From Ianthella basta (lineage: Eukaryota > Porifera > Demospongiae > Verongiida > Ianthellidae), in assembly GCA_964019415.1 (NCBI GenBank), contig OZ025888.1:190001-254000 (forward strand): a DNA stretch of 64,000 nt, read 5' to 3'. Positions 2,097 to 41,622 of this stretch are shown piece by piece. The notes below the pieces were generated by a model. It saw only the letters and a program-made list of their open reading frames with translations. It was not told the origin of the DNA and ran no database searches. The position numbers and the translations under genes are program-made. The first letter of the stretch is position 1; each line of letters starts with the position of its first letter.

Positions 2097-5000
2097 TCAC
2101 TCACTGCCACAATTATCCTGGTTCAACTCCAGTGGTGAGCTGGTTGAGAGAAAGCTTCTCTCAATCTCCCTAGCAACCGTTTCCCCCACTGTCTCCCTGA
2201 CAGCACTCAGGACAGACTGCCACACACGAGGCTGCTCCCCAGTGCCTGGACCTCGGGCAAGCCAGCGAAGGAAAAGGTCCCTGCATGCTCCTTCAACATC
2301 ATGAGGGTGATTTGCATTGATGATGGCCAGAGCTCCTGGCTCCACCCCCAGGGACAGCCCCAGTGGGTTCCACTGGGCAGCAACGTGGCACACCACCAGC
2401 TGGTTCAGTTTGTTAAGTGAGGGGGTGGAGAGAAGGGGATTGATTGGAGCCTCTGTGGGACCTGACAGGAGATTAGAGATCAGCAGAATCAGCAGAAGTA
2501 TGCAGCACCTGAGCATATAAGACACCCCTTTTATGAGGAATGCTAGAGTTTTGCACATGCACTGTAATAAATAATGGGAATAAGAAATGGTTGAAGGTTT
2601 CTATACGTCACTGAATTTCACACTTTTGTGTTAATGGATAAACCTGATGCAAGTGATCCTGGCTAAAACCAGCACCTGTGAACAGCTCTAGGAAGAAGAC
2701 AGCACAAACCCATGTCTAGAGTATAAGATAGCATGACTGTTCCCTTACACCAGCTGTGGGGACCTTACCAATTAATGGAACCTACACCAGTCCCTACTTC
2801 CTTGTCTCCCAACCATCCTACCCCTAGCTAATTATAACAGGGTCAACTCACCATTCTGTGCCACACTTGGATAGCTCAGGACGTGTACAGTGGCCACTGC
2901 AGGTAGCTCTCCTCCAAATAACCAATCAATAGGAATAGAAGCAGTGTTTGGTGACTCCGACAGTGTATGGTCATGACCACGACTGAGGCAGTACTTGATG
3001 GTTGAAATGCGAAAGAGTGAGTTGAGCTGAGCGGCTTTGGGGTCCTTCCACAAATGGGACATATACGGGTAGATGACGTAGGGTGTGGCCTCCAGCTTTG
3101 GGGATAGCTGAGCAATGGTCTTGGTGACATCTTGTACAACGGCTGCTGTGTATTGCTGTAGTCTCTGAGGTCCAGCCTTGCTGCCTACACGTCCAACAAC
3201 CTGCATCACACTGCTGTCGCTAATCTGAACTGCAATGTCCACTCCTTTGGTGGAGCTCCAGGAGATACCGTTCACCCAAACACTACAGCGGCGCTCTCTC
3301 ACACTGTGTGATGTCTCTTGGATGAACACAAAAGTGGCTGCAAGACGGAGGATGATGGTTTGCAGCAGACGGGCTGATATGGATTGCTTCTCAGGGGAAT
3401 CTGTTCTCAGCTGCCAGCACATCCACTGGAAGTGCTGTGAGTATGGATTTTCTGGCAACACATTGCATGGTTGGGCTGATACCAGGGCAGGGAAGTACAA
3501 CCATCCTTCTTCCTCTGTATGAGTGGTCAACTTCAACAGCTCTTCTTTCAGTAGCAAAGGGTCAATCTTGATGCAGAACTCTAAGCTCTTCAAGACCTCT
3601 TGGATCATCTCTGGAACCAACTCGGGAAACAGGTTGGCCAGCTGATTGTGGTGGAGGAGTCCAAACGGGTTGTCCTTGACCTGGTACCCACTGAACAGTG
3701 TGCCATAAACATCGTGGAGAAGAGATTGGAGGTTTAAGATGAGCCAACTTTGGGAGGGGTCTTGTTTGTTAGGGAGGAAAAGTGTATGGCCAGCTGCTGA
3801 GAGGTCCTGACACACCTCCTCTGGTGAGGGGAGGTTCCTGGGAAGGTCTCCAGCATTGTCCTGCAGCCATGTCTGAAACTCATGGAGACGTAGAGCTGGA
3901 ATTGAGAATGCCTTTCGCACTTGCACCAAGACCCAGTGCAAGTTGTAGGAGAGAGCATTAGTGTTCACTGGACGGGCCTCTTGTAGGAAGCTGCAAATCT
4001 GATTGATACCTTTTGACTCAGGTTGGCGGCAGTCAAGGAGACAGGGACCTTGAATGTCCAAAGCTAACTCAGTCTCCATTGACTGAGTGCATCGTAGCAG
4101 CTTTTCAGATGCTTCCTTCTTTGATTTGACTTGGTCCAAGAAACTGCCAACAACAACCACTTGAGGAGTGATTGGAATGGACATCAGAGCAAGAGGTTGC
4201 AGCCAGTGATAAAATTGCTGTGTGATGATGTCTTCTTCTTCAGTGGCCTTCACTAGAAGCAGCAGGGTCACTGATACACCTGGTTTGCTCACCATGGCCT
4301 CCAGGAAGGACTGGTGTGGACCGTGGTACTGAGACTGACCTGCAAAGTCATAAAACAGTGCCTCTCCATATTTCCGATTGGATAGTGGAACTGCTTCAAT
4401 GCCAGCTGTTCGCTGCCTGATGTCATGTACCTTCTTGTAATGATTTACTGTCTTCTTCCAAAGAATGTCACTTGTACATTCCAATGCTGCCACCAGTGTA
4501 CTCTTGCCATTTTCAGTATTTCCAATCACCGCAATGACACGTTTGGTGGTGAAAGATAATCCCCTCTGCACTTCATCTACAAACAATTTGGATCCCAATT
4601 CCAACGGATTGAGACGGTGTCTATTCTTTGCCCTGACATCTGCTCCTGCCTCCACAAGGAAGACTCCACACTTGACATTTAGGTTATATGAAGCAGCATA
4701 GTGCAGGGCTGTATCCTTTGTAGGTTGAAAGGACAGCACCATTACCAATCCCGTTGTTGGATTCACAAATTCTCCCAAGTTGGTCATTTCAGTCCACAGA
4801 TCTGCTCCTTCTTTAGAAATGATAACTGCCAAGTATGCCTCAGCCACTGCTACCAGAATATGCAGAACTGCCACCACTCCTTTCAGCAGCACTGCTCTCT
4901 TAGTGGCTACTGATAGCATGCCAGCTAAAAGTCTGACTGTTACTACCACCATCAACACAAGATGTAGGTTATCCAGTGACACTAAGGCATCCTCCATATT

Positions 5001-6650
5001 TAAGAGTTTTGTGGCCTCAAATACAGTAAACCCTACAATTCCCCTGCAAAGTGCCATCTCAGTCGCTTGAGGTTTCAACACCATCAGAAGAAACCATGTG
5101 CACAATACAACAGCCATCAAAAATTCCATCATCCCTAGTGCTTTCTGACTTTCATGAAGGACAATCGCTTTCTTTACTATCATCATGCATGATGATACTA
5201 CAATAAATATCTCCACAGTTAGAATCACACCTTTTGATACTGCCATTACTAGGTCCTGCCAAATTGGCACAATCCTTTTCCACAGCATACTTGTTAAACC
5301 AAATACTGCCATGATGGTAAGAACTCCAGCCACTACCTGTGACCTTGTCATCACAATATCTCGGGGCGACCATGCTAAAATCACTGGTACCAATATTATC
5401 AATGCCAACACTGAGCACACACTCATTGCTACATTTACAACAGTCCCCACAACTTCTCTGACCACTGCTGCCACCGTTACCTCTGGTCCTCGCCTCACCA
5501 ACGGTACTGCCAAAACTATCATTATAGATAGCACCCAGGGTACTGGCCCTGCCACCATTGCCATATTCATTGCCATAACAATGGTGACAACAATCACCTC
5601 AGACACCAACATCATAATCCATGACCCTGGCATTATCATGAAAGCTACAATGGCCAACACTAACATAGCAATCACATATAGAGAGCCCCACAACAGATCA
5701 TTCCAAAGCCCAGCTACCATATTGATCTGGAATTTCATCCAGTGGCAAGGCAATATTGCGCAAACCACTGCTGCCATCCAATAAGACGCCTTTGCCCAAT
5801 TCACTCTACCTACATTCAGTGTACGTAGCATATCACGAAGTAATACTTTGCTTTCACTGCTTACATTGCAATTTGCCAAGATCAGCTCCTTGACAATGCT
5901 GTCATGGCCTCTAAGTGTTGCCATCATCACTGGGGTCTGACCCTTGTGAATGTGGTCCACATCACAACCTGCTTCAATGACAGACTGCACCATGCTCAGG
6001 TCACCGAAATCACATGCATGCCAGAGAATGCGGCTGCAATCCTCCCTCCACAGGTCACCTACATCCCTAACCAGTTGGCCAACCATGTCATAGTTCCTTG
6101 CCAAGTGAACAGCAGTCATCCCCTTTTTGTCCTTGAGGCTGATGTCTGCTCCTGCCTTCACCAGTTCATCTACAACAGCACTATGCCCTCTCTCCACAGC
6201 TAACATCAGGGCTGTCCTGCCCTCATCATCCTGCTCATTGATGTTGATGTTAGTCTCCAAGAAGAGTTTCACCAGTGACTGGTGACCGTAGTATGCAGCA
6301 ATGTGCAGTGCAGTCCTGCCAGACCTTCCGATCTTCCAGGCGACCACTTCTCCAGCAGCCTGCTCACCCATTCTTAAGATGAACATCACCAACAGGTAAA
6401 ACTTCACCAATGCCTGACAAATGTAGTAGGCAGCAGTGTACAGTGCACTCTTGCCAGACTCCCTGACCTTGAGGTGTATATCAGCATTAGCTCTGATCAG
6501 CTCTCTAGCAACCTCCACATCACCATGATAGGCTGCCCTCAGCAGTGGTGTCCACCCTGAACTGTCGTATGCATTCACATCACGGCCAGTTCGAATGAGA
6601 TGCCTCACTTTCGCTAGCCTATGTCGATTACGGATAATGTGAAGCACCAT
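2097..6650 (-). CDS. Gene A: ankyrin / multi-span membrane / Roc-COR / Death protein
   Basis: There are two exons, 6650-2852 and 2461-2097, joined at donor AATG|GTGAGT and acceptor CCTGTCAG|GT in phase 1, giving about 1387 residues. Residues 30-265 are ankyrin repeats (GWTPLLRAAYHG, GRTALHIAAYYGHQSLVKLF, GRTALMLAVERGH). Residues 290-645 hold about ten hydrophobic segments, and residues 647-690 hold one more ankyrin-like repeat. The Roc GTPase domain has its P-loop GNTENGKST at 711-719 and DFAGQ at 769-773. The usual NKxD motif is not seen; GSFLDQVKSKKEA stands at that place. A COR-like region covers about 895-1215. Exon 2 encodes a Death domain (NQLVVCHVAAQW to VWQSVLSAVRE). The ATG at 6650 is preceded by in-frame TAG and TGA. 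The layout recalls DAPK1 (ankyrin-Roc-COR-Death) without the kinase and with added membrane spans. A membrane-anchored GTPase adaptor or receptor for death-fold signalling is inferred. Confidence 0.85.
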
Positions 6651-7686
6651 CACTCACTACCCGGTCTGTATCCAGCTCATTGGTAAAGTTTGATCTACAC
6701 AAAACAGAACAGATGGTAGAGAGTGTAGTATAATCTTGCTGCTCCTCAAGCAAGCATCAATTACACAACACACACCGTACCATGCATGAACAACCATCAC
6801 AATGCGCAATATATAGGCTGCATGCTCACTGAAAGGTGTATGGACTATTACATTGCAACACTTCACTTCCCACCATCCCAATCACAACCTAGTGCACGCA
6901 GTGTAGCCACTTTCACCTCAAGTCATTCATAATTCACTACGTGTCAACAGTAGAATTGCTTTGGACATGATGATTGTACCATGAATTGTAAAATGTCATG
7001 CATGTAATCTCACACAATGCCTGATCATGCCCTAAAAACAACAGAATCAAACATCTACACAGACAGAACATCAAACAAACAAACAACAAACGAAACAGAC
7101 ACTAGTTCCAATGAAGGGTGCGATGGGTGGGGTGGGAGTTGTTGGCTAGCTACAGCCCAGGGTAAACTCGGATATTCTGACCTTTCCTATAACCTATAGG
7201 CGTCTGGTCACAGCGCGTGCAACATATACGAGCTCTCCGTACATTTGCGGCTAGCAAGTAACTTACCAGCAGTTAACGTGCCCTGTAGGCTGTAGTATGG
7301 AAACACAGGAGTAGCAGCTACGATACGTGGCTACCGGGTAATGGGCTCTGGTTTCAGTATAAAATGAAGCTCCTAGCTCTCCGACCGCGGGTTGAAAGGA
7401 TTCAGTGTGCACTGAGTCTTAGTGTAGCTACGCTGGCTGTATCTACAGGGGCGCGCAGAGTCGCCGGCTCACTCTCGGAGGTCTCTCGATCTCTTGATTC
7501 GAATCCACGGGACGGGTGTGTCCCCAGCTGCAATTCGTCATGTGACTTTATTTCCCACCCATTACGGATCACGCGCTAATTATGCTTTAGTTTACACGCA
7601 TGCGCACCCGAGTACGCATACATGTACAGCTGTATTAAATTGGTAATACACAATAATTGCAAGTAGCGTTAACATCAATGTTCTGA
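6651..7686. other. Upstream region of gene A, duplicated upstream of gene E
   Basis: There is no gene here. The stretch matches 41623-41752 joined to 48254-49290, which is the upstream region of gene E split by the gypsy insertion. Shared landmarks are CAACCATCACAATGC, CACTTCACTTCCCACCATCC and AATGGGCTCTGGTTTC. It probably contains the promoter of gene A, but I cannot point to a specific element. A TATAAAA at about 7357 reads on the plus strand and is not placed to drive A. Confidence 0.5.
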
Positions 7687-7815
7687 CTACACTCCAAACC
7701 ACTCTGCCCTGAGTTGCTCTGCTAACTCTCCCTTCCTGCTCTTCTCCAGAGCTCTCAAGACAGAGCCCCAAATTCTGTCTTCCCTTCCAGTGCTACGAGC
7801 ACCTTTCAGCCATCA
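7687..7815 (-). pseudogene. Orphan Death-domain exon relic (C-type)
   Basis: Read on the minus strand this encodes the C-terminal part of a Death domain (TGREDRIWGSVLRALEKS, then GELAEQLRAEWFGV and a stop). It is very close to the end of the Death exon of gene C. The front half of the domain and an acceptor are missing: sequence upstream switches directly into the duplicated end of the plus-strand gene at about 7845. No big Roc-COR exon is attached. The same fusion occurs at about 56870-57000, so the join predates the duplication. Confidence 0.7.
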
Positions 7816-7849
7816 AAACTGTTCCCTCTCCCATTAATATTGCTTGACC

Positions 7850-9635
7850 GACTGTCACTGTCTCAGCTGCCATCTTGTGAGGCCTCTCTCCTCTCGAGGG
7901 ACCTTCTTGTCAGTCTACCAGTGAACCTCCCTCCAGGCCTCCTCTCACTGCGGACTGGAGGAGACAGCTAGCATACACTCAACATTATTATATATAGACC
8001 ACCATTTATATTCACAACTGCACATTTAACTACTGATAGATAATACCCACTTAATCACTGTATTTATGCACAATTTAATTTTGTATTCAATCTATAATTA
8101 TACAAATTTGAAACTATATAGAATCATTGCATGGCTATAATATAAAATTATGCTATAATAATTGCTTAGGGAAAGTATGTTGGTAAATGCAATCAAATTA
8201 TAACAGCAGATGTACATGCATACAATAAAGCTTTGTCTCCTTCACACCTGGGTATATATAATTATAATTATCGCGCAGTCCAGCGGGGCAACACGGAAGC
8301 GGTGAGGGGTACCTTTCCCCAATCAGACAATGGTTATTTGCAATCATTTAGTAGTGCAGTGGTTTAGGCACCGCCCATTTTCAGTACTAGTAATTAGTAA
8401 TTTTATTACATAATTATATGCAGACTTTAAGTTGACCCTTTATGTTTCCTATTAGCTTAAATTGTAATCATATGTCATGTTAAAAAATTATAATTATAAT
8501 TAATATAAATGTCATCAATGTTAAGTTACATTCAAGATATCTAGAATAAACAGCAGTTATTAATTATAGGTAAAATTATACTATTACGTATAATTATGCA
8601 TGTGCTTACAATAACAATAATATGAATTAAGAATTATGAAATGCACAGTTAACAGTCCATGCACACAAATACAAGAATATTCCTTAATATGTTATATATC
8701 AGGTGGTAGAGTTTGCAGTTGTCAGTGAATTCATGTCCTTTTACGGAGTTGACCTGTGCAATGCAATGGGAAAGAATCAATCAATGGAACTCAAATTGGT
8801 AACAGTACCATGCAGATCAGTACACACACACACTACAGGGGCACGTGGGTGTACAGTAGAATGGTAGGCATTAGTAGAAAGGCAGTGTTGTTGTAACAAG
8901 TGGGCACAAACCACTACAAGTAACATAAATATGGGGCATTAATACACCCTAGCTGTAGTGTTAATCAAAGCAGTGTGTGTACATAACCGTACCATCTGAT
9001 GAGGCAAGTTAATTAAAGGCTGGTCCACTTGTGGACACCATTTTCACAATCAACACATGATTGCACAATATAATTCCCCTTACACGGAGCTGTACGTAAC
9101 AGGGTGAAACCCTACCACTGCAATGCGATTGTACAATAAAGTTCGTAGATTATTGTTCTCTAGCTAGAGAAATGTTGCAGTCAATAGCCCTATAGTAATT
9201 ATAGCACATTTCATTGGAGTATAGTGATGGAGAGGAGAGAGACTGAGAACACAGTGCAATGCAATATCATACACAGTTACTAGCATTCATGGTAATATGC
9301 AAGAATGTGATAAAACAGTACGGTTCACGCAACCTCACTGGCAGTGGACATGTCCAACATGCATGGTAACAGGGCAAGTCATTCAGTGACATTTGACTCA
9401 GCCAGGTGTTGACACTGTGTGCTCAAATGGGGTTAATTGTTCACCCATCACCAAGGGTTTCACAAAAATATGACTGCAAGGGCACATTTCTGAAGAGCCT
9501 GTTTTCACATGCAGATTTTGAACATATACTGTACAAATTTTCTGTGACAGTTTACTCCCATTCATTTCTCTGCTCAAAATGGTTTATGAAGTGTCCACAA
9601 AGTACTCTAGATCTTCATCACATCTAGTGCTCATT

Positions 9636-9710
<75 letters not shown>
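7850..9710. repeat. Segmental duplication block, copy 2
   Basis: This is a direct copy of about 340-2060, ending at the (AC)n tract in front of the Death exon of pseudogene B. It carries a stretch near 8270-8490 that is absent from copy 1, including CGCGCAGTCCAGCGGGGC, which is probably a small insertion. It lacks the minisatellite found in copy 1. No coding sequence is supported beyond the copied last exon at 7850-7975. Confidence 0.8.

Positions 9711-9711
<1 letters not shown>
9637..9711. repeat. (AC)n microsatellite
   Basis: About 37 uninterrupted AC units lie just past the 3' end of the Death exon of pseudogene B. A shorter AC tract occupies the same position beside gene A (about 2070-2093). 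Confidence 0.95.
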
Positions 9712-9715
<4 letters not shown>

Positions 9716-9791
9716 TGTCATAACTATCCTGGTTCACACCCAGCGGTGAGGTGGCTTGAGGAAATGACTCTCTCTCAATCTCTCCAGAAAC

Positions 9792-12700
9792 CTACTCCCC
9801 CACTGCCTCCCTGACAGCCTCCAGGACACATTGCCACACACGAGGCTGCTCCCCAGTGCCTGGACCTCGGGACAGCCACTCACGGAACATGTCACGACAT
9901 GCCTGTCTTACATTGTGGAGGTTGTCTGTGCGAATGGTGTCCAGAACTGCTGCTCCTACCTCAAGGAACACTCCCACTTCATACCACTGGGCAGCAACTT
10001 GCCACACCACTAGCTGGTTGAGTTCGTCAAGTGTGGGGGTTGAGAGGAGCCTCAGATGGCCCTAACAGGAGAAGAGAGGGGCAAATTATGCCTGCATTAG
10101 TACACTGTACTGTGATGCGTCCCGTGTGGTGTGACCTCTTTGACTTCATTCACTAAAAACCATTAATTGGACAAAAATCTCTTTGCCACTTAAATGGCCA
10201 TCTTTGTCAGACCACTAATTTAAAAGTGTCCCTTCGGCTAAACTCCTACAGCCAATACACAGATTTGGGCAATTACTATATATTAGCCAAATTCACGGCC
10301 GTGTCCTATACTCATACCTTCCAGGACAGCCAGTTTAGTCCATGCCTGTTCATACTAACATACAGTAGTCTGGCTAGCTAGACCAGTGTGGAGGGGAAAC
10401 GGACTTTATAGCAAATTATCTTATGCCTTGCACCAATAGCTACCTCAGAGCAGAGGGTTTGAAATACACGATGCACTGGAAGACCTGGTTATAATAAGTG
10501 CACAGAAAACACCAGCCCTCTATCCTCTAACAACATGCACACATAAACTCACCACTTTGTGCTACAACAGGAAACTCCAAGCCTTCTACAGTTGATTTTG
10601 AAGGTATCTCTCCTCCAAATAGCTGACCAATAGGGATGGTGCAGGTGTGCTGGTCCATGGATGGAGTGTGGTCACCATCAGCACTGATGCAGTTAATGAT
10701 AGTTGAAACATTGTACAGTGAGCTAGGCTGAGGGGCTTTGGGGTCCTTCCACAAGGTGGGTGTGTATGGGTGGATGATGTAGGGTGTGGCCTCCAGAGTC
10801 GGTGACAGCTCAGTAATGGTCTTGTGGACATCTTTTACAATGGCTGCTGTGCATTCCTGTAATTTCTGCGGTGACCATCCAACCTTGCTGCGTCCAACAA
10901 CCTGGACCATACTGCTGTTGCTAATCTGAACTGCAATGTCCACTCCTTTGGTAGAGCTCCAGGAGATGCCGTTCACCCAAACACAACAGTGGTGTTGCCT
11001 CACACCAGGAGATGGCTCTTGGATGAACACGTGATTGGCTGCAAGACGGAGGATGATAGTTTGGAAGAGATGAGCAGAAATGAAGTGCTTCTTATGATTT
11101 GTTGTCCTCAGCTGCCAGCACATCCACTTGAACTGTGTGGGGTATGGATCCTCTGGGAAGACCTCTGGAGGTTGGGCTGAAACCAGAGCAGGGAAATACA
11201 GCCATCCTTCTACTCCCATGTCCAAGGTTACTTTCGAGACTTCCTCCTTCAATGGTGTACGATCAATCTGGATGCAGAACTCAAGGCTGATGAGGACCTC
11301 TTGGATCAGTTCTTGATTCAAATTGGTAAATACTTTATTCAGTTGACTGCAGTGGAGGAGACCAAACTTATTGACAGGGGACCCACTGAACAGGGTGCCA
11401 TACACATTGTGGAGAAGGACCAGAAGATCCAAGATCAGCCAACTTTGGGAGGGGTCTTCCTTGTTAGGGAGGAAGAGCATGTGGCCAGCCGCTGAGAGAT
11501 CCTGACACACCTCCTCTGGTGAGGGGAGATTCCTGGGGAGGTTTGTAGCTGTAGAGCAACTGCATTTTGGAACTTCTTCCGCACCTGCACCAAGACCCAA
11601 TGCAGATTGTAGGAGAGAGCTTTATTGCTCACTGGATGGGCCTCTTGCAGGAAGCTGCAAATTTGATTGATGCCTTTTGACTCAGGATGGCGGCAGTCAA
11701 GGAGACAGGGACCTTGAATGTCCAAGGCTAACTCAGTCTTCACTGACTGAGTGCATTGCAGCAGCTTTGCAGATGCTTCTTTCTTTGACTTGACTTGGTC
11801 CAAGAAACTGCCAATGACAATTACTCGAGGAGTGATTGAAATGGACTTCAGAGCAAGAGGTTGCAGCCAGCAATGGAGTTGCTGTGTGATGATGTCTTCT
11901 TCTTCAGTGGCCTTCACTAGAAGTAGCAGAGTCACTGAGACTTCTGGTTTGCTCAGCATGGCCTCTAGGAAGGACTGGTGTGGACCATGGTACTGAGACT
12001 GACCTGCAAAGTCATAAAACAGTGCCTCTCCATATTTCTGATTGGAAACCTGAACTGCTTCAATGCCAGTTGTTCGCTGCCTGATGTCATGTACCTTCTT
12101 GAAGTGATTTACTGCCTTCTTCCAAAGAATGTCACTTGTACATTCCAATGCTGCTACCAGTGTACTCTTGCCACATTCGGTATTCCCAATCACTGCAATG
12201 ACACGTTTGGTGGTGAACGACAATACCTTCTGCACTTCACCTACAAATATATGGCGGCCAATTTCCAATGGATTGCGACGAAATCTATTCTTGGCCCTCA
12301 CATCTGCTCCTGCCTTTGCAAGGAAGACTCCACACCTGATATGGTTGTGTTCAGCAGCATAGTGCAGGGGTGTAACATTAGAAGCTTCAACAGATTCCAG
12401 CAATACCAATACCACTATTAGGTTCACAATATCTCCCATGTTGACCATTCCAATCTGAAGCTCTGGTCCTTCCTTAGAAATGACTACTGCCAAGTACACC
12501 TCACCCACTGCTACCACCAATAGCAAACCCATTACCACTGCTTTCCACCGCAACCATGCTAATATGACAGCTAAACACCGAGCTATTACCAGCAGTACGA
12601 GCATAAGATGTAGCATATCCAGTGACACTAAGGCATCCTCTAACTGCACTAGTTTTGTGCACTCGAATACAATGAACCCTGCAGCTCCCCTGTACAATGC

Positions 12701-13505
12701 CACGCACATCTCATGATCAGTTGCTTGAGTCCTCAAAGCCATAATCAGAAACCAAATGAACAATACAGCAATCATCATTAGTTCCGCCATCCCCTGTGCT
12801 GTTTGGCTTTCCCCAACAACAAAGGCCTTTCTTCCAATCATCATGCATGATGATGCTATAACAAACAGCTCCATATTTACAATCACTCCTTCCAGCACTG
12901 CCAATACTAAGTCCCATTGAGCTAGCACCACATGCACTTTTTTCAACAAGACAATTGTCAAAATAATAGTTGCTGTAAGGATCAAAGGTCCAGCACCTGC
13001 TAAATCCTGAGGTGCCCATACCAAAATCACTGGCATTATAAACACCATTCCAAAGCCTGTACACATTATAAACACTGCAAATAAAAAGGTTGCCCCAACC
13101 TCTTTGGCTACTGCTACCACTGTTGCCTTAGGTCCCCGTATCACTAACAGAATTGCCCCAACCATCACTACAGACAATACCCAGACCAGTGGTCCTGCCA
13201 CCATTGCCACTTTCAGTGCCACATGCATGCCAGAGAATGCGGCTGCGATCCTCCCTCGACAGGTCATTTACATCCCTAACCAGTTGGCCAACCATGTCAT
13301 AGCTTTTTGCCAGCAGAACAGCAGTCATCCCCTTCTTGTCCCTGAGACTAACGTCTGCTCCTGCCTTCACCAGTTCAGCTACAACAGCACTATGTCCTCT
13401 CTCCACAGCCAACATCAGGGCTGTCCTGCCCTTGTCATCTTGTTCATTGATATTATTCAATCTGTAATCCTCTCTCGACAGGTCCTTGCTCCAAAGTGCC
13501 ATCAC
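9792..13505 (-). pseudogene. Gene B: broken ankyrin / membrane / Roc-COR / Death paralogue
   Basis: The order of parts matches gene A: a short ankyrin stretch (13505 to about 13220), membrane segments (13215 to about 12370), Roc with P-loop GNTECGKST and DFAGQ, COR-like sequence, a donor at 10553 (AGTG|GTGAGT), an acceptor before 10061, and a Death domain to 9792. Several defects are visible. The first ankyrin repeats are missing. A deletion near 13220 joins WHAC of an ankyrin repeat directly to the middle of the membrane region in another frame. A second out-of-frame deletion near 11560 removes about a dozen residues at the start of COR. The Death exon is out of frame with the donor phase. 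The Roc part remains open and very close to its paralogues, which suggests recent inactivation or gene conversion. Confidence 0.8.
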
Positions 13506-17641: not shown

Positions 17642-23906
<6,265 letters not shown>

Positions 23907-25865: not shown

Positions 25866-27370
25866 TCAGCTTGGGAAAAGGCTTCTTTCCACATCCCCAG
25901 CAACTGTCTCCCCCACATCCCCAGCAACAGCCTCCAGGACAGACTGCCACACACGAGGCTGCTCCCCAGTGCCTGGCCCTCGAGACAGCCACTCATTGAA
26001 CATGTCACGACATGCCTGTCTTACACTGTGGAGGTTGTCTGCTTGAATGCAGTCCAGAACTACTGCTTCAAACTCCAGTATCAACCCGACTTCATACCAC
26101 TGGACAGCAACTCGCCACACCACTAGCTGGTTCAGCTTGTTAAGAGTGGGGGCAGAGAAGGGATTGATGCGAGGTTTGCAGGAACCTGAGAAATGAATGC
26201 CAATGATGTGTTTTAAGTTCAGTTAGTTGCTCCTTGTACCATCCATCAAACCCTGAACCCAGTGATCAAGAGATATGAGATTAGAGATGCATGAACAATT
26301 GAAATGGCATACCATACCTGAGGAGAGTGCAAGTGGTGACGAGGCTTCATAGAGCAAGGAGCGTAGATACGATGGAAGACCTGAAACAAGAGGAGAGAGA
26401 AAGTGATCATGAAGCACAGCCAAGAGCAAGGAAGATTTTTGTTGGAACAGATTGATAGAAGACACAAGCTAAAGCAAACTGAAGGATATACACTTTCATA
26501 ATTGTGCATTTTTGGTAATGGCTGCTATAATTATAGCTACATGCCGCCCATCCTACAGAGCTTTGCAATTGAAAATACATGGTCAAATCATACAAATTTA
26601 ACTTCCACTCACCAGCACTATATTGTAATGGTTCTTCTAAGTTCATGACTTGGAGAACTGGCAGCGAAGGAGACCATCCGAACACCTCAGACAGGCTCAA
26701 CTGCTGAGGATGATCACCATCCTCTTTTGGTAGGGATAGAACATGGTCATCACCATTGCTGATGCACCGAGTGATACTTGACACAGGATACAGTGAGTCA
26801 GACTGAACGTCTTTTGGGTACTTCCACAAGGTGGCTGTGTATGGGTGGACGATGTAGGATGTGACCTCCAGCTTTGATGGTTGATGTGTATTGGTGCAGT
26901 CTCTCAGATCCAGCCTTGCTGCGTCCCACAACCTGGACCACACTGCTGTCACTTATCTGGACATCTATGTCCATTCCTTTAGTGGACCTCCATGAAATGC
27001 CATTCACCCAGACACAGCAGCAATGCCTGTGCTGTCTCACACTAGGAGCTAACTCATGGGTGAACACGTGATTAGCTGCAATACGAAGGATGATAGTTTG
27101 GAGGAGATGAGCTGATATGAAATGCTTCTCGGCTGTCCTCAGCTGCCAGCACAGCCACTGGAGGTGCTGTGGGTCTGGATCACCTGGGAATAGCTCACGA
27201 GGCTGAGCTGACACCAGGGCAGGGAAGTACAGCCAACCTTCATCCCTTGTATCAGAGGTCAACTTTGGTAGTTCCCTCTTCAGCAGCGAAGGATTAATCT
27301 GGATGCAGAACTCCAAGCTGATCAGAATTTCTTGGATCATTTTATGATTGAACTTGGGAAACATGTCAGC
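25866..27370 (-). pseudogene. Gene D: 5'-truncated Roc-COR / Death paralogue
   Basis: Only the later part of the family gene is left. The second half of the COR-like region starts at about 27370 (HKMIQEILISLEFCIQI, VWVNGISWRSTKG). A frame break and loss of about 25 residues near 26880 follow, then a donor at 26613 (GCTG|GTGAGT). Next come a 63-nt mini-exon 26380-26318 (GLPSYLRSLLYEAS) and a Death exon 26185-25866 (LVVWRVAVQWYEVG, VRQACRDMFNEWLSRG, VWQSVLEAV). The exon phases are still consistent. No ankyrin, membrane or Roc sequence lies upstream: the gene stops abruptly against repeats at about 27370. The Death domain is of the A/B subtype. Confidence 0.8.
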
Positions 27371-27639
27371 CAGCTGAGTTTCATGAGATGCGGTACCAAA
27401 AGCAGACCGAGGAGATCAATAGAAACCATTCAGCCACTGCCATGCATGCAGTGATCAAGTCAACGCACAATGAGACAAAAGCAGATCAACATTTGCAGTA
27501 AGAAGAAAGTACAAACCCCAGCTGTGAGTCTGAAAAGCAGACCGAGGAGACCAATAGATTGATGTATTTATGTTTTCATTATGTTATGGTGAGGATGAGA
27601 GTGTTGCACCGACCCTCTCCCCTGGCGAATGACAGCAAA

Positions 27640-27815: not shown

Positions 27816-28084
27816 TCCTGCCAATGTACATGTACCACAGTTATGTGTGCAAGCACACAACGCCAGCCCTTCAGATAATCAGTGCACGGTTAAAGGCAGC
27901 CACTGCTGCAGTGATGAGAACCGGGGGTGCATCCTTGGTTTCGACTCCCACCCATGCGTCTGATGTGGAGGAATCACTCGGCAACCTTAACTAGTAGTAG
28001 TCATTTAGCCACTCAGGACTAAATCCCCAAAACCAACTGTATCCATTAGGCATAATCCCCATATCTATCATCATCATATGTACA

Positions 28085-28637: not shown

Positions 28638-28659
28638 CCAACCAGACCTCCTTCTCCTT

Positions 28660-32350: not shown

Positions 32351-32359
32351 GATATCATT

Positions 32360-32797: not shown

Positions 32798-32906
32798 CTA
32801 GTTATCATCGCCAAGTCCACTACCTTGCAGCTGGGTGGCACAAAGTAGATTAGAATGAGGGAATGAAACAAAGGAATGAGAACACATACATACACATGCA
32901 TGCATG

Positions 32907-32908
<2 letters not shown>

Positions 32909-32980
<72 letters not shown>
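32909..32980. repeat. (AC)n microsatellite
   Basis: About 36 AC units lie between the CARD exon of gene F and its possible last exon. The duplicated copy near 56679-56720 is shorter. Confidence 0.95.
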
Positions 32981-32982
<2 letters not shown>

Positions 32983-33068
32983 CACACACATACACACACA
33001 CGCACACACACAAACACACGCACATTAGTACATACACGATGCCATTCACACAATAGCACACAGCTTCA

Positions 33069-35408
33069 CTAACCTCCTTGTAGCTCCTCCTTCAGCTTCT
33101 CTCCAAATGACTGCATGTTTGGAAGACCGTTTGCCGAAATGGCTACCTCACAATATTCTCTCAAAGTGCCCACACTTGCATTACGTTGCAGGTGATCAAA
33201 CAGTATCTCCTGTGCATCTTCTTCAGTGGTTGCAGCGTTGATACGTGATGCTACATCTGGCGTAATGACTCTTTTGCGCTCTAGCCTCATTAGGCTAAAC
33301 TTGGGGTTCACAACTTTAAAAAACTCTTTCTCGTGTTTGAGTAAAATCTCTGAGACCGTATATGGTGTGCCTGCATTGTAAAGTGGGTACACGGAATTAA
33401 CACAAACTACCAGATCAGTCTAAATGTTTCACACGTGCACTACATTCCTCTCATAATTATGGTTCCTGCATGCAATTCTTTAAGAAACACAAAAGGAACT
33501 TGATAGGTGAAGGCAACATCATAAAGTAGTGAATGCAAAGAAAGCTTCTTGTCATGGTAAGCAATGACACGGCTGTAACAAATGTGACATAATGACTACA
33601 ATTTTTGGGGTTTACTTTCGAGAATTATCTATTTTTGAAGATATTTGTCTTGAATTTGTATTTGCTAACAACGAATATGCATGCCTCCCACGTACCTTCG
33701 TCAGTAGATGATGTCAGCTGAGGGTTGCCGGAATGGGAAGCTTCAGAAGAGGCACGGGACCCAGGGGGTGTTGGTACTGTATACAAAAGAGAGTGCAATA
33801 AATATCAGTGCTGCACTACAAAATTTGCTAGGCTTCGTTTGCACCAGCCAGGGTTCTTAAAAATCCTAAATGTTTTAGATTGCTGAGAGTCCTGGCTAGT
33901 GCGAACGAATCCAAGCATGTGCAAACTTCCTAACAACTCAGACCTCTTCAAAGTTAATAGAAAATTTACGTTGTGGGGGGAGTGAAACACGTTTCAAGTG
34001 AGCAATTAAGCCTCCTGTACAGTGATATCATCATTGAAAATTCACAAGGGTTTCAAGATGAATAAACAAGCCCCCTTAGAATTCCCTACATGCACCCAAG
34101 CATGCATATACATGTACATTAGGGCTATACTGAGACTACACACTACAGCCATGCTTGCACCAAATAGATACAACGAAGACTGAATTTACATATGTATCCT
34201 TCCGCACTCACTCCTCTCCTCTTCGACTCTACAGCAGAAATGAAGAGGCTTATTTGCTCCATCCACATGAACATTCATCAAGGCAGCTTTCACTCGATTC
34301 TCCTTTGCACCAGTGTAGACAATTTTGTAAAGGATGCAGGGGGGATAGCGTCCACTAGTGATCTGTTTCTGCAAGTCTTTACTGGACAGTGCCACAGGTA
34401 ACAAAAACAGTTCAGCTTCGATCTACATGCAGAATAGTAAGAATGAGGGCATGCCTGTAATACACAGTCACATCTGTTCTAGACCTAATGGTAAGCAAAC
34501 TGCAAACTAACTGATTGTTGTCCGTCAATGGCTGCTAACCATCCTGGACCAGATGATTGCTCAGGCCTAGCTGTGATTTGCTGCTGATCATACTGAAACC
34601 GAGTCACAGCAGAGCTGCATTTCTCCCATCTTTCTCTTTCTTCTCTTTGCAGTAATGTGTTTGTGACCATCTGTGGTGGGTAAGTCAATTTCCATATAGT
34701 TATATTATACATGAATAATTGAACCCAAAAGCTAGTACATGTACATCCTAAATTTATACTATAGCTATGTACTAATAATGCTTATGATGCAACAATATAT
34801 TATACGTACCTCATTCCATTCCAGCGAGTCACACATGATCTGAATCCTGAAGAACAGAGTGTCTTGTGTTGGGATGTATCGAGAGAATGTGATGGCGCTG
34901 TACCGAGCAATTGTGTCAATCTTGGTCTCCACACAATGCAGGCACCGAGGCTCTGAAATACTGAGAACACCTCTGTCTGAATGAGAAGCAAAATCACCCT
35001 CATCCTGCTTCTCAAAGACATACTCCCTCTGCCCTGCTTCCAGGGTGTGTGATGCTTGGAGAAAGTGTAGACTGTCATCACCTCCCTTCTCCCTGCTGCT
35101 CCAGTGGGAAAGAGTAAGTTGAACTGGCTTCACCAAAGTGGCTCCATCCATGTTTAAGTAGACTACCACTGAAGTGAGCTTGCAACCAGTGGGAAGCACA
35201 AAAGGGCCATTGAGTATGATGGCATAGCGGACCAGTGTCTTCTTCACCACAGCTTCTGGGGGAAACTTCAGTGATGCATCACCTCTGCCCAGAGTGAAGG
35301 TCCCTCCATCACAGCCAACACGAATGCATTTGATGTCAGTAGCCATGCAGCACAGCTGCTGCAAGAGAGCTTCATCTGGTAATGTATTGTGGAGTACTTG
35401 TCCCTTTG
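33069..35408 (-). CDS. Gene F: ZU5 / UPA-like / CARD-like protein
   Basis: At least five exons are read on the minus strand: 35408-34810 (donor GAG|GTACGT), 34670-34512, 34422-34212, 33776-33696 and 33370-33074. Phases are consistent throughout. The first encodes a ZU5 domain (GGTFTLGRGDASLKFPPEAV, ILNGPFVLPTGCKLTSVVVY). The second and third look like a UPA-type region. The fourth is a Ser/Pro-rich linker. The fifth is a helical death-fold domain most like a CARD (LMRLERKRVITPDVASRINA, EILFDHLQRN, FGEKLKEEL). The protein ends either at the stop at 33069 or, after splicing at GGAG|GTTAGT, in a short exon 32823-32798. ZU5-UPA-death-fold tails are known from UNC5, PIDD and ankyrins. The first exon starts in phase 1 with no ATG nearby, so upstream exons exist; the phase fits the end of gene E. 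Confidence 0.75.
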
Positions 35409-35691
35409 CTACAGAGGAAGGCATTAAAATGCATAATTATAGGGTTCAACTTTGCATCTGTCGTATAGCTATTTTATGGTGATCTCAGAATTCTGAATCT
35501 GTGTTTTTCAGTTAACAATCATCTTGTTTAAGTTATACATGTCAGGACGGCAGCACGTACAGACTAGTCGATATTATGGAAACACAGCATAGTCCACAGA
35601 AGTCTCAAAGAGAATGTTATCCCATTGACCAGTATAGAAATGTGAAGGGTAAGAGAAAGGCAATGAAATATTCACAAAGCTGTGCTCATTA

Positions 35692-36855
35692 CCGTATAAA
35701 TTCTAATATAGGCGCCGCCCCAATTAAAGCACCCCCTAGGGGCATACTGTATTTTTCCTGTTCCAATTGTAAGCATCCTTGGGCGTTGGAAATAATTTTA
35801 GGTGGCGCCTAAACTAATGGAGCCGAAGTATGGTAGTTCGCACTTCCAACTTATACCTTTGCTGCTGCTGCTACATGAAATGGCGCCCTTGACAGACTTT
35901 ATAATACCCCTTTCACACGGACCATTATTCCGGATTTAAGAACCGGATTCGCAACCGGGTTAGATCCGGGTTGTGTTCACACGGACGATTTTCGCTGCTG
36001 GTGAACGGTTAATTTCCGGCGTTCGAAGAGCTGCTTTTAATCCTGGTGTTGTTTTGGCTGCGCGCAAGGAGAGGGAGGAGGCGGCGAGCTAGAGGACGAC
36101 GGACAACTTCAGTACAGAACGCACTCTATGCGGTAGTGGGGTTGCAGCAGCAAATGCTGGTCTGCGCAAGTTTAGCGAGTGCGCGACGCCTCTTTCAAAG
36201 TACGAGAGCGAACAGGTCAATGTGGGTTGAGCACTGGAACGCGGCAATCTTTCAAAATATTGTTCCTGGTTGGAGTGATCACGACTTCAGTCGTGCAACA
36301 TTTCGCTAAACGCTGTTTAACGTGTGTTAACGCAATCAACTCCCGGATTCACCGTATATAATGCGGATTTAAAACCACCTCGCCAGCAGGTTTTTAACCC
36401 GGATTCGGATCCGGTATTTGATCGCCGTGTGAATGCAGAAACCCACATTTATCTGGGTTTCAATGCGGATTAACTGGTCCATGTGAAAGGGGTTTAAGTG
36501 TGTCAGCCCAGACGGCTACATCGCTGCTTCATTCTCAACCAGAGAATGTGGGATCAGTGGGAAGAAGATGGCCAAGCGACCTGTGGGGAGACTGAGGAAG
36601 CGCCCACTGGAACTGAGCAATGGCCAGGCGGAGGCCGACAAGCCGGAGAACATCCAGGCGGCACCTGTAGTTGCTGATGGTGAGGAGCCTAGTGCCAGGT
36701 CCATTCGATGCCAGTACACTGCTAAGCAGAAGCAGCGCGTTGTCCTTTACGCTAGGCGCCATGGAGTTCGTCCCGCTGAAGCCACACATGTACCACAGCT
36801 TACGTGCATACAGATCAAAGAGGAAGACAACACTAACCACACACAAACAGCATAA
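35692..36855 (+). mobile_element. Remnant of a DNA transposon with N-terminal HTH
   Basis: The left edge reads ACCGTATAAATTCTAATATA followed by GGCGCC, a terminal pattern I associate with pogo-like transposons. From 36568 a frame of 95 residues encodes a basic N-terminus with YTAKQKQRVVLYARRHGVRP, resembling the first helix-turn-helix of transposases. It has no catalytic domain and no matching right end. A Harbinger MITE (35905-36494) is inserted in it. The family call is tentative. Confidence 0.5.
35905..36494 (+). mobile_element. Non-autonomous Harbinger element
   Basis: The ends are inverted: ACCCCTTTCACACGGACC at left and, on the other strand, ACCCCTTTCACATGGACC at right. They are flanked by the 3-bp target duplication TAA. 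They resemble the ends of the large Harbinger at 42899-45990. The interior (36046-36309) still encodes a short part of a HARBI1-type transposase (IFQNIVPGWSDHDF, matching FFQDIVPGWNDGDF in the large element), so this is an internally deleted relative. Confidence 0.85.
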
Positions 36856-37480
36856 TCAACTGTGTCTTCCCATTATAGTACATCACAACAATCCCATCCC
36901 ACTCGATATTCAACTCAGTGCCATGGCCATCTCAGTAACTCTGTTAACTTTGCTACATTTGAGGTACGTATACACAGTGACTGACTATTGAAATCACAAT
37001 CGCATGGCTGAGAAAATCATGCGATGTTGATGATAATGAGGCTCATATCTATCTAATTATGCAATTCAACGGACATGGTGACTTTGAGCTGAAACATAGC
37101 AGAAAACAATTCATTAACCAGTGGTCAGGGCATCTATTGCAACGAGGGTTGACCCTTGGGTTTGTATACATTTGACACAGACACTTGTGACCAAAACGTC
37201 CTGTACTGTTGATTGTTTCCCAAAACATTTCAACTCAAAACTGTTTAAGCTCTCCAAGACAAAGACAGTACAAGCACCACACCTACATGTGCTGCATACA
37301 GTAGCATGATTGTTCCTTCTCACAATATAGCTATGGGGACCACACAAACCAACACCAATCCCCCATCCTCCCCCCTCAATCTCCCATGCATCTATGCTCA
37401 ATGAGAGCCAACTCACCATCTGGGATTGACTCTCTCTTGATCTCCTCAGTTACCCTTTCTCCTGTTATTGTTATAGTGGT
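36856..37480. other. Intergenic or intronic, nothing recognised
   Basis: No gene is supported. If genes E and F are one unit, this stretch is intron. Confidence 0.4.
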
Positions 37481-37489
37481 GAGCCAGCT

Positions 37490-37560
37490 TGAGTGACTGT
37501 CCCTAGGAACCACCTCCAGGACAGACTGCCACACACGAGGCTGCTCCCCAGTGCCTGGCC
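37490..37560 (-). pseudogene. Death-exon relic behind gene E
   Basis: On the minus strand the sequence CAGGCACTGGGGAGCAGCC to CTGTCCTGGAGG matches the part of the A/B/D Death exons that encodes GTGEQPRVWQSVLE. The front of the domain and its acceptor are gone. Gene E therefore has no complete Death exon of its own. Confidence 0.75.
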
Positions 37561-37883
37561 TGACAACTATTTGGGTTATGTGTATGGTGATTCAAAGAGG
37601 TAAGGAAACGAATGAAAACTATTTAGTTTACTAAAATTCATACCATTTGGGCAAGTGGTTTAACTAGAAAATCTGAATGCCAGTATAATCTTGGTTATTC
37701 ACAAAACCTGTGAGTAGCTCCAGGAAGGAGAACAGCATACAAACCCACATCTATAGTATAAGACAGCTTGACTGTTCAGATTCCTTACACACTAACTGCA
37801 GGGCTATACTAACCTATATCACTCCCATTTCCCCATCTCCTATGCATTCTTTTAAATTCTTATGTGATCACGAGTCAGCTCAC

Positions 37884-40800
37884 CATTTCGTGCTACACTT
37901 GCATAGTTCAAGTCTTGTACAGTGGTCAGTAAAGGCAGCTCTCCTCCAAATAACCAGGCGATAGGGATAGAAGCGGTGTTTGGTGCCAGTGATGAAGCAT
38001 GGTCATCACCATGACTGAGGTGGGAATTGATAATGGAAACAGGGTACATTGAGATAGGCTGAGCGGCTTTGGGATCCTCCCACAATATGGGCGTGTATGG
38101 ATGGATGATGTAGGGCGTGGCCTCCAGCTTTGGTGATAGCTGGGAAATGGTCTTGATGACATCTTGTACCACAGCTGCAGTGTATTTCTGTAAGGTCAGA
38201 GCTCCTGCCATGCTGCATACGTGTCCAACGACCAGGACCACACTACTGTCACTAATCTGAACCGCAATGTCCACTCCCTTGGTGGAGCTCCAGGAGATGC
38301 CATTCACCCAAACACTGCAGCAATACCACTTTTTACTAGGAGATATTTGTTCAATGAACACATGCCTGACTGCAAGGCGGAGGATGATGGCTTGCAGCAG
38401 ATGAGCTGAAATAAAATGCTTCTCAGGGTAATCTGTTCTCAGCTGCCAGCACATCCACTTCAAGCAATGCGGGGGTGGATCATCTGGCAAGACATTGATA
38501 GGCCGGGATGCTGATACTAGGGCAGGAAAGTACAGCCATCCCCTGTCCTCTGGACCAATCAACCTTGATACTTCCTCCTTCAATAGCAAAGGATCAATCT
38601 CAATGCAGAACTCCAAGGCCTTCAAGACCTCTCGGATCATCTCTGGAGCAACTCTGGGAAACAGCTTAGTCAGCTTGCTACAGTGAAGGAGACCAAACTG
38701 GTTGTGTTCTACTGGGGACCCACTGAACAAGGTGCCATACACATTGTAGAGAAGGGCTGGGAGGTCCAAGATGAGCCAACTTTGGGAGGGGTCTTGCTTG
38801 TTGGGGAGGAAGAGCGTGTGGCCAGCTGTTGAGAGGTCCTGACACACCTCCTCTGGTGAGGGGAGGTTCCTGGGGAGATTTCGAGCATTGTCTTGCAGCC
38901 ATGTCTGAAACTCAAGGAGATGTAGAGCTGGAACTGAGAATGCCTTTTGCAGTTGTACTAAGACCCAGTGCAGGTTGTAGGAGAGAGCTTTAGTGTTCAC
39001 CGGATGGGCCTCTTGCAGGAACCTGCAAATTTGATTGATGCCTTTTGACTCAGGTTGGCGGCAGTCAAGGAGACAGGGACCTTGAATGTCCAAGGGTAAC
39101 TCAATCTTCACTGACTGAGTGCATCGGAGCAGCTTTTCAGATGCTTCCTTCTTTGATTTGACTTGGTCCAAGAAACTGCAGACAACAAGCACTTTAGCAG
39201 TGACTGGAGTGGATATCAGAGCTAGAGGTTGCAGCCAGCGATGGAGTTGCTGTGTGATGATGTCTTCTTCATCAGTGGCCTTCACTAGAAGCAGCAGGGT
39301 CACTGAGACTTCTGGTTTGCTCAGCATGGCCTCCAGGAAGGACTGGTGTGGACCGTGGTACTGAGACTGACCTGCAAAGTCATAAAACAGTGCCTCTCCA
39401 TATTTTGGATTGGAAACCTGGACTGCTTCAATGCCAGCTGTTCGCTGCCTGATGTCATGTACCTTCTTGAAGTGATTTATTGCCTTCTTCCAAAGAATGT
39501 CACTCGTACATTCCAATGCTGCCACCAGTGTACTCTTGCCATGTTCAGTATTTCCAATCACTGCAATGACACGTTTGGTGGTAAAAGATAATGCCTTCTG
39601 CACTTCACCTACAAATGTCTTAGAGCCAATTTCCATTGGAGTGCAACGGTGTCTATTCTTTGCCCTCACGTCTGCTCCTGCCTCCACAAGGAGGACTCCA
39701 CACTTGATACGGTTGTAACTAGCAGCATAGTGTAGTGCTGCATCATTAGCTCCTTCAACAGATAGCACCATTACCAATACTGTGGTTAGATTCACGAAGT
39801 CTCTCATGTTGACTGTTGCAATCAGCAGCTTTTCTCCTTTCTTAGAAATGACCAGTGCCAGATATGCCTCAGCCACTGCTACCATCAAGTGCAGAACCAC
39901 CACCACTCCTTTCAACAGCACTGTTCTCTTAGTGACTATTGATAGCATGCCAGCTAAAAGTCTGACTGTTACTACCACCATCAACGCAAGATGTAGCTTA
40001 TCCAGTGACACTAATAAATCCTCCATCTTCAGTAGCTTTGTGGACTCAAATACAACAAACCCTGCAGCTCCCCTGTACACAGCCATCTCAGCTGCATGGG
40101 TTCTCAAAACCATGAGCAGAAACCATATGAATATCATTACAGTCATCAGCAAATCGGCTATCCCCTGTGCTGTGTGACTTTCAGTAAATACAAAGCTCTT
40201 CCTTCCAATCATCATGCATGATGAAGCTATGACAAACAGCTCCACATTTACAATCACTCCTTCCAGCACTGCCAATGCTAAGTCCCATTGAGCTAGCAAC
40301 ATCTTTTTCATCAACATAACAATTGTTAAAATTACTGCCACAAAGATCAGAAACACAGCACCCGCCTCTCGTGTTGTCACCAAACCTTGAGGTGACCATA
40401 CCAAAATCACTGGCACCAGAAGCAACATTCCAAGTATTGCAAACACCATCAACGTTGCTAATAAAATGCTTCCCACAACCTCTCTGATCACTGCTACCAC
40501 AGTTGCCTTAGGTCCCCTTATTCCCAAGGGTATCACTACAGACAATACCGCGACCACTGGTCCTGCCACCATTGTCACTGTCAGTGCCACAATCAGTGCT
40601 ATGGCAACCGTCCAAGACCCAAGCAACATCATAGTCCTTGACCCTGGCATTAGCAGTATCCCTACAACAGCCAAAACTGACATCACAAGTAGTACCAGAG
40701 AACCCCACACCGGATCAACCCAAAGTGTAGCCTTCATCCAAGGCAACAAAACACAAACCACTGTCGCTATCCAATAGAATCTTTTTGCACGAATCAGTCT

Positions 40801-41622
40801 TGCCAAATTCAGAGTGTTTGCCATATCCCGATACAGTACACTCCCTCTGATCTGGACATCACAATTGGCCAAGATCAGTTCCTTGACAATGCTGTCATGG
40901 CCTCTCAGTGTTGCCATCATCACTGGGGTCTGACCCTTGTGAATGTGGTCCACATCACAACCTGCTTCAATGACAGACCGCACCATGCTCAGGTCACCGA
41001 AATCACATGCATGCCAGAGAATGCGGCTGCGATCCTCCCTTGACAGGTCACCTACCTCCCTAACCAGTTGCTCAACCATGTCATAGCCCTTTGCCAGTTG
41101 AACAGCAGTCATCCCTTTCTTGTCCTTGAGGCTAACGTCTGCTCCTGCCTTCACCAGTTCAGCTACAACCCTAACCCTATGCCCTCTCTCCACAGCCAAC
41201 ATCAGGGCTGTCCTGCCCTCATCATCCTGCTCATTGATGTTGACCTCGGTCTCCAAGAAGAGTTTCACCAGTGACTGGTGCCCGTAGTAGGCAGCAATGT
41301 GCAGTGCAGTCCTGCCAGACCCCTTGACCTTCCCATAATAGTCAGCTTTAGCTCTGACCACCTCTCCAGCAGCCTGCTCATCCACTCTCAAGATGAACAT
41401 CACCAACAGGTAAAACTTCACCCATGCCTGGCAAACATAGTAGACAGCAGTGTACAGTACACTCCTGCCAGACCCCCTGACCTTGAGGTGTACATCAGCA
41501 TTAGCTCTGATCAGCTGTCTAGCAACCTCCACATCGCCAAGATAAGCTGCCCTCAGCAGTGGTGTCCACCCTGACTTATCGTATGCATTCACATCGCAGC
41601 TACGGATAATGTGAAGCACCAT
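37884..41622 (-). CDS. Gene E: ankyrin / multi-span membrane / Roc-COR protein, 3' exons uncertain
   Basis: The big exon is fully open for about 1246 residues from the ATG at 41622 (in-frame TGA two codons before it) to the donor AATG|GTGAGC at 37884, phase 1. It encodes ankyrin repeats (GWTPLLRAAYLGDVEVARQL, GRTALHIAAYYGHQ), about ten hydrophobic segments, and an ankyrin-like repeat (AALHYAASYNRIKCGVLLVE). Roc follows with P-loop GNTEHGKST and DFAGQ, then a COR-like region. The N-terminus is about 15 residues shorter than in A. Without splicing it would end DHIRI. The Death exon behind it is a relic, so the transcript either stops here or splices into the ZU5-CARD exons of gene F, whose first exon begins in the right phase. 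The 5' flank is interrupted by the gypsy element 131 bases upstream. Confidence 0.8.

What the first reader, a model, noticed from the sequence alone, without database searches (positions are those of the whole stretch)
2097..41622. Array of ankyrin / multi-span membrane / Roc-COR / death-fold genes
Five paralogues on one strand (A to E) combine ankyrin repeats, about ten hydrophobic segments, a Roc GTPase domain, a COR-like region and a Death domain. Ankyrin-Roc-COR-Death is known from DAPK1, but a polytopic membrane block between two ankyrin parts is not an architecture I know from any described Roco family. Tandem birth and death of members, with two broken copies and three relics, resembles innate immune receptor arrays. 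The receptor role is inference.
Basis: partly seen in the sequence, partly recalled or inferred. Interest (0 to 1): 0.8.

Follow-up and report, generated by a model that had tools for sequence, protein, structure and literature searches.

The report
Membrane-spanning Roc-type GTPase death-domain genes
This animal genome carries an array of related genes, each predicted to encode a protein that spans a membrane many times and joins ankyrin repeats to a Roc-type GTPase switch and a cell-death signalling domain, a combination I did not find described in the papers searched; it could be a new kind of cell-alarm receptor.

Summary
The observation largely holds. Three minus-strand exons (A, C, E) are open for 1257-1318 codons and encode ankyrin repeats, a hydrophobic block, one ankyrin repeat, a Roc-like GTPase and a COR-like region. 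A phase-compatible Death-domain exon follows A and C. B and D are broken; E's Death exon is a partial remnant; the "three relics" were not found. The window lies in a larger array: 20 family loci (6 plus, 14 minus, broken ones included) at C21:0.10-0.46 Mb.

Added here: the block shows 12 consensus hydrophobic peaks (8 in four shorter forms), both even. It matches only this family in the genome (19 of 21 places; 2 unread fragments). Relatives on C4 share the Roc-COR part but have ankyrin repeats where the block would be. The genes are mosaics: block and COR-like region are about twice as diverged at fourfold sites as ankyrin and Roc modules. Roc is supported by profile-profile comparison; COR by no tool.

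Most likely these are membrane-anchored Roco-type switches that recruit Death-fold adaptors. The immune-receptor role is inference. No transcript, topology predictor or other animal genome was available.

The parts
2852..6650 (-). Copy A, big coding exon (ATG to donor, phase 1): ankyrin, block, ankyrin, Roc-like, COR-like
   Evidence: open frame; start and donor; Pfam
4734..5831 (-). Copy A, hydrophobic block (limits approximate)
3966..4553 (-). Copy A, Roc-like GTPase region
   Evidence: limits
2853..3965 (-). Copy A, COR-like region (not proven)
   Evidence: limits
2145..2429 (-). Copy A, Death-domain match in the downstream exon; acceptor 32 nt upstream, phase fits
10545..13502 (-). Copy B, broken: ATG at 13502, pieces 13221-13454, 11570-13222, 10545-11549; residues about 220-360 missing and frame changes
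9771..10043 (-). Copy B, Death exon with one TAG, acceptor distance out of phase
20090..23906 (-). Copy C, big coding exon (ATG to donor, phase 1)
   Evidence: open frame; Pfam
21972..23042 (-). Copy C, hydrophobic block, residues 290-646 (12 consensus peaks)
   Evidence: weak model
21213..21800 (-). Copy C, Roc-like GTPase region
   Evidence: limits
20091..21212 (-). Copy C, COR-like region (not proven)
   Evidence: limits
17666..17932 (-). Copy C, divergent Death exon; possible acceptor 20 nt upstream, phase fits
26431..27406 (-). Copy D, broken: two pieces of the COR-like part only
25875..26156 (-). Copy D, Death exon
37884..41622 (-). Copy E, big coding exon (ATG to donor, phase 1)
   Evidence: open frame; Pfam
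39766..40827 (-). Copy E, hydrophobic block (limits approximate)
38998..39585 (-). Copy E, Roc-like GTPase region
   Evidence: limits
37885..38997 (-). Copy E, COR-like region (not proven)
   Evidence: limits
37424..37558 (-). Copy E, partial Death remnant

Best explanation
A family of membrane-anchored Roco-type signalling proteins, expanded in this genome. Shown at sequence level: one exon encodes N-terminal ankyrin repeats, a hydrophobic block with 12 consensus peaks, one more ankyrin repeat, a Roc-like GTPase and a COR-like region; a following exon, in phase in A and C, adds a Death domain. Inferred: the peaks are membrane helices, and their even number leaves both ankyrin parts, the GTPase and Death in the cytosol; the ankyrin repeats or the block sense a partner or a membrane change; GTP cycling or pairing of the Roc-COR-like part brings Death domains together, which recruit a RAIDD/PIDD-like adaptor and caspases. 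Array duplication, loss and exchange of modules give a repertoire, which suggests immune or self/non-self use.
For: Thirteen open copies (12 of more than 1250 codons plus L021) and median dN/dS of 0.29 in Roc over 78 pairs argue for working genes. Mean hydropathy of the block is 1.16-1.40 in 11 copies against about -0.2 to 0.1 in the ankyrin, Roc and COR-like modules; 12 and 8 peaks in long and short forms. Loops predicted inside carry more K+R than those outside, 1.60 against 1.22 on average (weak). Roc: hhalign probability 97, E 9.5e-11. Death: profile hits to RAIDD 2.6e-4 and PIDD 4.9e-4, Pfam Death in 11 of 13 members. Donor and acceptor phases fit in A and C. Array of 20 loci and mosaic divergence.
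Against: No transcript, topology predictor or localisation. COR fails both tests. The Roc score is below Pfam's cut-off and MMR_HSR1 scores higher. Four non-block peaks pass the same hydropathy threshold, one of them inside Roc at 1.78. Both AlphaFold2 models are poor. The block is the least constrained module (median dN/dS 0.72), which also fits plain relaxation. E has lost most of its Death exon.
Confidence: 0.5

Rival explanations
1. Membrane-anchored scaffold or housekeeping signalling protein of the Kidins220 type, expanded by neutral duplication, with no role in recognition.
For: Kidins220/ARMS already combines ankyrin repeats, four transmembrane parts and Walker motifs (PMC10707181, passages). 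dN/dS is below 1 in the median of every module, so no positive selection is shown. Predicted loops are short, leaving no extracellular domain.
Against: Array with many broken copies, a Death exon, and different nearest relatives by module in 11 of 11 copies look more like a repertoire.
Confidence: 0.25
2. Cytosolic protein: the hydrophobic block is spliced out or folds as a non-membrane helical domain.
For: No topology predictor or transcript here; relatives on C4 have ankyrin repeats where the block would be; the block is the most variable module.
Against: Open frame kept through the block in 13 copies; high mean hydropathy in 11 of 11 copies; the same peaks across paralogues; polar/non-polar swaps 0.114 against 0.216 expected (Roc shows a similar halving, so this is not specific).
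Confidence: 0.12
3. Ion channel or transporter with a Roc-Death tail (a channel-enzyme of the TRP kind).
For: Ankyrin repeats before a multi-helix block is the layout of TRPA and TRPN channels, whose ankyrin parts are among the PDB matches.
Against: No Ion_trans or transporter family in 5 long and 4 short blocks at E<=10; helices vary more than a pore would be expected to.
Confidence: 0.06
4. The GTPase is not Roc but another P-loop GTPase, so the family is not Roco at all.
For: MMR_HSR1 outscores Roc and passes its cut-off in C; COR is not detected; a Roc-COR profile finds no Roco structure in the PDB.
Against: hhalign to the Roc of an LRR-Roc-COR array of the same genome: probability 97, E 9.5e-11 over 119 columns including the G1, G3 and G4 places.
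Confidence: 0.07

Closest known systems
DAPK1 group of Roco proteins
   Same: Roc-COR with a C-terminal Death domain and no LRR (PMC6337361, passages); ankyrin repeats in DAPK1 are recalled
   Different: DAPK1 has an N-terminal kinase and no multi-span block is mentioned (word 'transmembrane' 0 times in that paper); no kinase here
Kidins220/ARMS
   Same: N-terminal ankyrin repeats, several transmembrane parts, Walker motifs (PMC10707181, passages)
   Different: Four transmembrane parts with Walker motifs on either side, SAM domain, no Roc or Death; no KAP hit here
Multi-span NLRs and Roc/COR genes of sea anemones
   Same: Innate-immune genes with 3-5 transmembrane parts, and a gene with kinase, Death, TIR and Roc/COR domains (PMC5094078, passages)
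   Different: The membrane parts are N-terminal on NLRs, not on the Roc/COR genes
Aplysia putative TLRs with ROC and COR domains
   Same: Roco domains reported in two genes classed as putative membrane receptors (PMC9334734, passages); the nearest claim of a membrane Roco that I saw
   Different: LRR/TIR genes; no ankyrin-multispan-Roc-Death order in the passages seen
Brown-algal LRR-ROCO candidate immune receptors
   Same: Roco family with module exchange proposed as an immune repertoire (PMC11378527, abstract and passages)
   Different: Variable part is exon-shuffled LRRs; here no LRR was found and the fastest-changing part is the hydrophobic block

Membership tests
Roco | Roc G-domain | tested here: met
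   hhalign probability 97, E 9.5e-11; Pfam Roc in 13 of 13 members at E<=1, best 3.7e-5; member scored in full (C) 24.4 bits against the 27-bit cut-off
Roco | COR domain directly after Roc | tested here: inconclusive
   Pfam COR-A 1 of 13 members at E 0.18; hhalign to a real COR alignment none; own-genome COR-A search lists no window place
DAPK1 group | N-terminal protein kinase | tested here: not met
   no kinase family at E<=1 in A, C, E; ATG stands just after an in-frame TGA
DAPK1 group | Death domain at the C-terminus | tested here: met
   as a separate exon; splicing itself not tested
NLR | NACHT/NB-ARC domain and LRRs | tested here: not met
   neither at E<=1 in A, C, E
TRP channel | Ion_trans domain | tested here: not met
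   no hit at E<=10 in 5 long and 4 short blocks
Kidins220/ARMS | KAP P-loop domain | tested here: not met
   no KAP hit at E<=1
Polytopic membrane protein | helices inserted in a membrane | not testable with these tools
   hydropathy only; AlphaFold2 pLDDT 43.7

The most novel reading that the evidence does not exclude
A class of membrane-embedded Roco death receptors: a diversified multi-helix membrane cassette, exchanged between paralogues, is the sensing part and couples straight to a Roc-type switch and Death-fold output in one chain, giving an expanded innate or self/non-self recognition repertoire in an early-branching animal.
Probability: 0.3. Interest if true: 0.82.

Novelty: new variant of a known kind. 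Interest (0 to 1): 0.62.

Why it matters
From general knowledge, Roco proteins are mostly studied as soluble switches brought to membranes by partners. A family that puts a Roc-type switch, ankyrin repeats and a Death domain on a built-in multi-helix anchor would let one ask how membrane events drive Roc-COR switching and Death assembly, and would add a repertoire-like family to the NLR expansions reported for sponges (PMC12909245, abstract). Relatives in the same genome with ankyrin repeats in place of the block offer a natural comparison.

Tried and rejected
AlphaFold2 models of C residues 2-705 and of its Roc-COR-like part reached pLDDT 43.7 and 32.4, so I ran no fold search; I use only the helix limits of the first, as weak support. 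A whole-protein shuffle control for hydrophobic segments did not separate real from shuffled by number (means 6.7-8.8, maxima 13-14, against 11-12 found). A PDB profile that kept the ankyrin repeat found ankyrins; without it, nothing significant (best E 0.2). COR profile comparison failed. Roc-COR scans of genome contigs and viral contigs found no relative (593 and 160 pattern matches, none confirmed). NCBIfam hits to bacterial ankyrin proteins lie far below their cut-offs and in the ankyrin part, and were dismissed. I considered that the high dS of the block is misalignment; the fourfold-site test on identical residues keeps the contrast, but single pairs have few sites and the 55 pairs are not independent. 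Other animal genomes could not be searched here. PMC10810608 and PMC6321704 (passages) gave nothing of use; PMC8195603 passages gave only general context. That I found no such architecture in print rests on the searches in an open-licence library; apart from the papers named with passages or abstract, I saw listings only.
Full report
What is there. The window is G000:C21:190001-254000 of a 209 Mb, 96-contig genome. On the minus strand three frames run without a stop for 1273 (A), 1318 (C) and 1257 (E) codons. In A, B, C and E the first ATG stands directly after TGA-GTG, and in A, C and E an acceptor-like AG (before ATC) lies 44 bases upstream, so the exon probably starts with a short leader and carries the start codon. 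A, C and E end at a GTGAGT or GTGAGC donor in phase 1. A Death-like exon follows A (2145-2429) and C (17666-17932). The distance from acceptor to Death frame is 32 and 20 nt, both 2 modulo 3, which fits the donor phase; one search printed 33 for A because my slice took one base too many, and one search shows 32. D's distance (29) also fits, but D's big exon is broken. B's Death exon has a stop and a distance of 18, out of phase. Of E's Death exon only query residues 61-94 of 95 are found, at 48.9% identity.

Domains. Ankyrin repeats are certain (Ank_2 E 1.5e-45, 1.8e-39, 2.6e-39). Roc is below Pfam's cut-off (16.5, 23.9, 17.9 bits against 27), and MMR_HSR1 passes its own cut-off in C (25.2 against 21.9) and in the piece of B (24.6), not in A or E. 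A family profile (13 members, 11 kept by the program) compared with the Roc of four copies from an LRR-Roc-COR array on C20 of the same genome aligns over 119 columns, residues 5-146, with probability 97 and E 9.5e-11. The region after Roc has the place of COR, but Pfam COR-A touches 1 of 13 members at E 0.18 and profile-profile comparison finds nothing; I call it COR-like. Death is supported by a 13-member profile that hits RAIDD (2.6e-4) and PIDD (4.9e-4) Death domains, and by Pfam Death in 11 of 13 members, best 8e-5, with E up to 10 allowed.

The hydrophobic block. The mean hydropathy of residues 281-650 is 1.16 to 1.40 in 11 copies, against about -0.2 to 0.1 in the ankyrin, Roc and COR-like modules. 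Single copies show 9-10 strong segments there. The consensus of 13 paralogues shows 12 peaks between residues 290 and 646, and four short forms show 8. The threshold of 1.2 is mine, and 4 peaks in the long and 3 in the short forms lie outside the block, one of them within Roc at 1.78, higher than three of the block's peaks; so hydropathy alone does not fix the number of helices. AlphaFold2 placed 12 long helices and a short one there, at low confidence. Both counts are even, which would put both ankyrin parts on one side; the K+R bias is in the right direction but small (1.60 against 1.22). The first 119 columns of the short and long blocks are related (hhalign 98.5, E 3.6e-15). C's block matches 21 places in the genome: 19 lie in copies of this family, and C21:345193 and C13:4541795 are fragments that I did not read, the second with a Death match about 3 kb downstream. 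No ion-channel or transporter family was found in 5 long and 4 short blocks.

The family. together place 20 family loci, broken ones and the unread C21:345193 included, at C21:0.10-0.46 Mb, 6 on plus and 14 on minus. Others are on C21 (2.9 and 3.9 Mb), C11, C12, C17, C16 (3 copies) and C4 (10 copies); the search scored 35 of 1016 candidates, so these are lower bounds. Twelve long copies have one open frame of more than 1250 codons, and L021 is open with a short N-terminus like that of B. C has a copy 97.8% identical about 220 kb away. Nine C4 loci were compared: their Roc-COR-like part is 62.5-63.6% identical to C's, and ankyrin repeats fill the 500 or so residues before it. Two of the nine were scanned for hydropathy and show 0 and 1 segment, and no C4 place matches the block; their frames run further upstream than I could read.

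Selection and mosaicism. Over 78 pairs of 13 copies, median dN/dS is 0.48 (ankyrin), 0.72 (block), 0.29 (Roc) and 0.31 (COR-like). For C-L012 dS is 0.10, 0.80, 0.26 and 0.18 in these modules, the interval of the block apart from the others; for A-L019 the COR-like part is close (0.20) while the block is far (1.12). In 11 of 11 copies the nearest relative by dS is not the same in all four modules, though small differences count there as well. Using only fourfold sites in identical, well-aligned residues, divergence is 0.149 (ankyrin), 0.283 (block), 0.157 (Roc) and 0.300 (COR-like) over 55 pairs, which are not independent. This fits exchange or homogenisation of the ankyrin and Roc modules with an older or faster block and COR-like part. 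The block's ratio may mean relaxed constraint with hydrophobicity kept, or diversifying selection; I cannot tell. Polar/non-polar swaps in the block are about half of expectation (0.114 against 0.216); Roc is similar (0.153 against 0.292), so this is not special to the block.

Mechanism. I infer a membrane-anchored switch: ankyrin repeats and membrane helices sense, the Roc part switches by GTP and pairing as in other Roco proteins (PMC6337361, passages), and clustered Death domains recruit adaptors. The predicted loops are short, so sensing would be in the membrane or in the cytosol. Each functional step is inference.

Known context. The DAPK1 group has Roc-COR and Death with a kinase in front. 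Kidins220/ARMS has ankyrin repeats, four transmembrane parts and Walker motifs. Sea anemones have multi-span NLRs and a kinase-Roc/COR-Death-TIR gene. Aplysia has two putative TLRs with ROC and COR domains. Brown algae have ROCO candidate immune receptors with shuffled LRR exons. NLR expansion in a sponge genome is reported (PMC12909245, abstract). None of the passages that I saw describes ankyrin-multispan-Roc-Death; the searches are listed in Tried and rejected.

Noticed in passing
33072-35436, minus: Between D and E lie a frame with a ZU5 domain (21.9 bits, cut-off 21) and one with a weak CARD match (15.9 bits, cut-off 23.9), perhaps one ZU5-CARD gene of the PIDD circle.
   Followed up: partly
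17950-18300: A long CA/TG dinucleotide repeat lies directly upstream of C's Death exon and runs into its ORF, which could affect splicing there.
   Followed up: no
42215-47800: Mobile-element frames: reverse transcriptase (E 5.3e-37), weak gag-protease match, a DDE_Tnp_4 transposase in two frames and a Myb-type DNA-binding frame; scanned singly.
   Followed up: partly
50592-51644, minus: DDE_1 transposase and HTH_psq frames.
   Followed up: partly
G000:C20, about 3.93-4.36 Mb: A separate array of LRR-Roc-COR genes with strong Roc and COR-A matches.
   Followed up: partly
   Followed up: no
L032 and L033 (C4): The two C4 copies give the same scores and alignment limits: a very recent duplicate or an assembly artefact.
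   Followed up: no
5158-5784 and 22435-23079, plus: Open frames of 208 and 214 codons run antisense to the hydrophobic blocks of A and C, probably a by-product of their codons.
   Followed up: no
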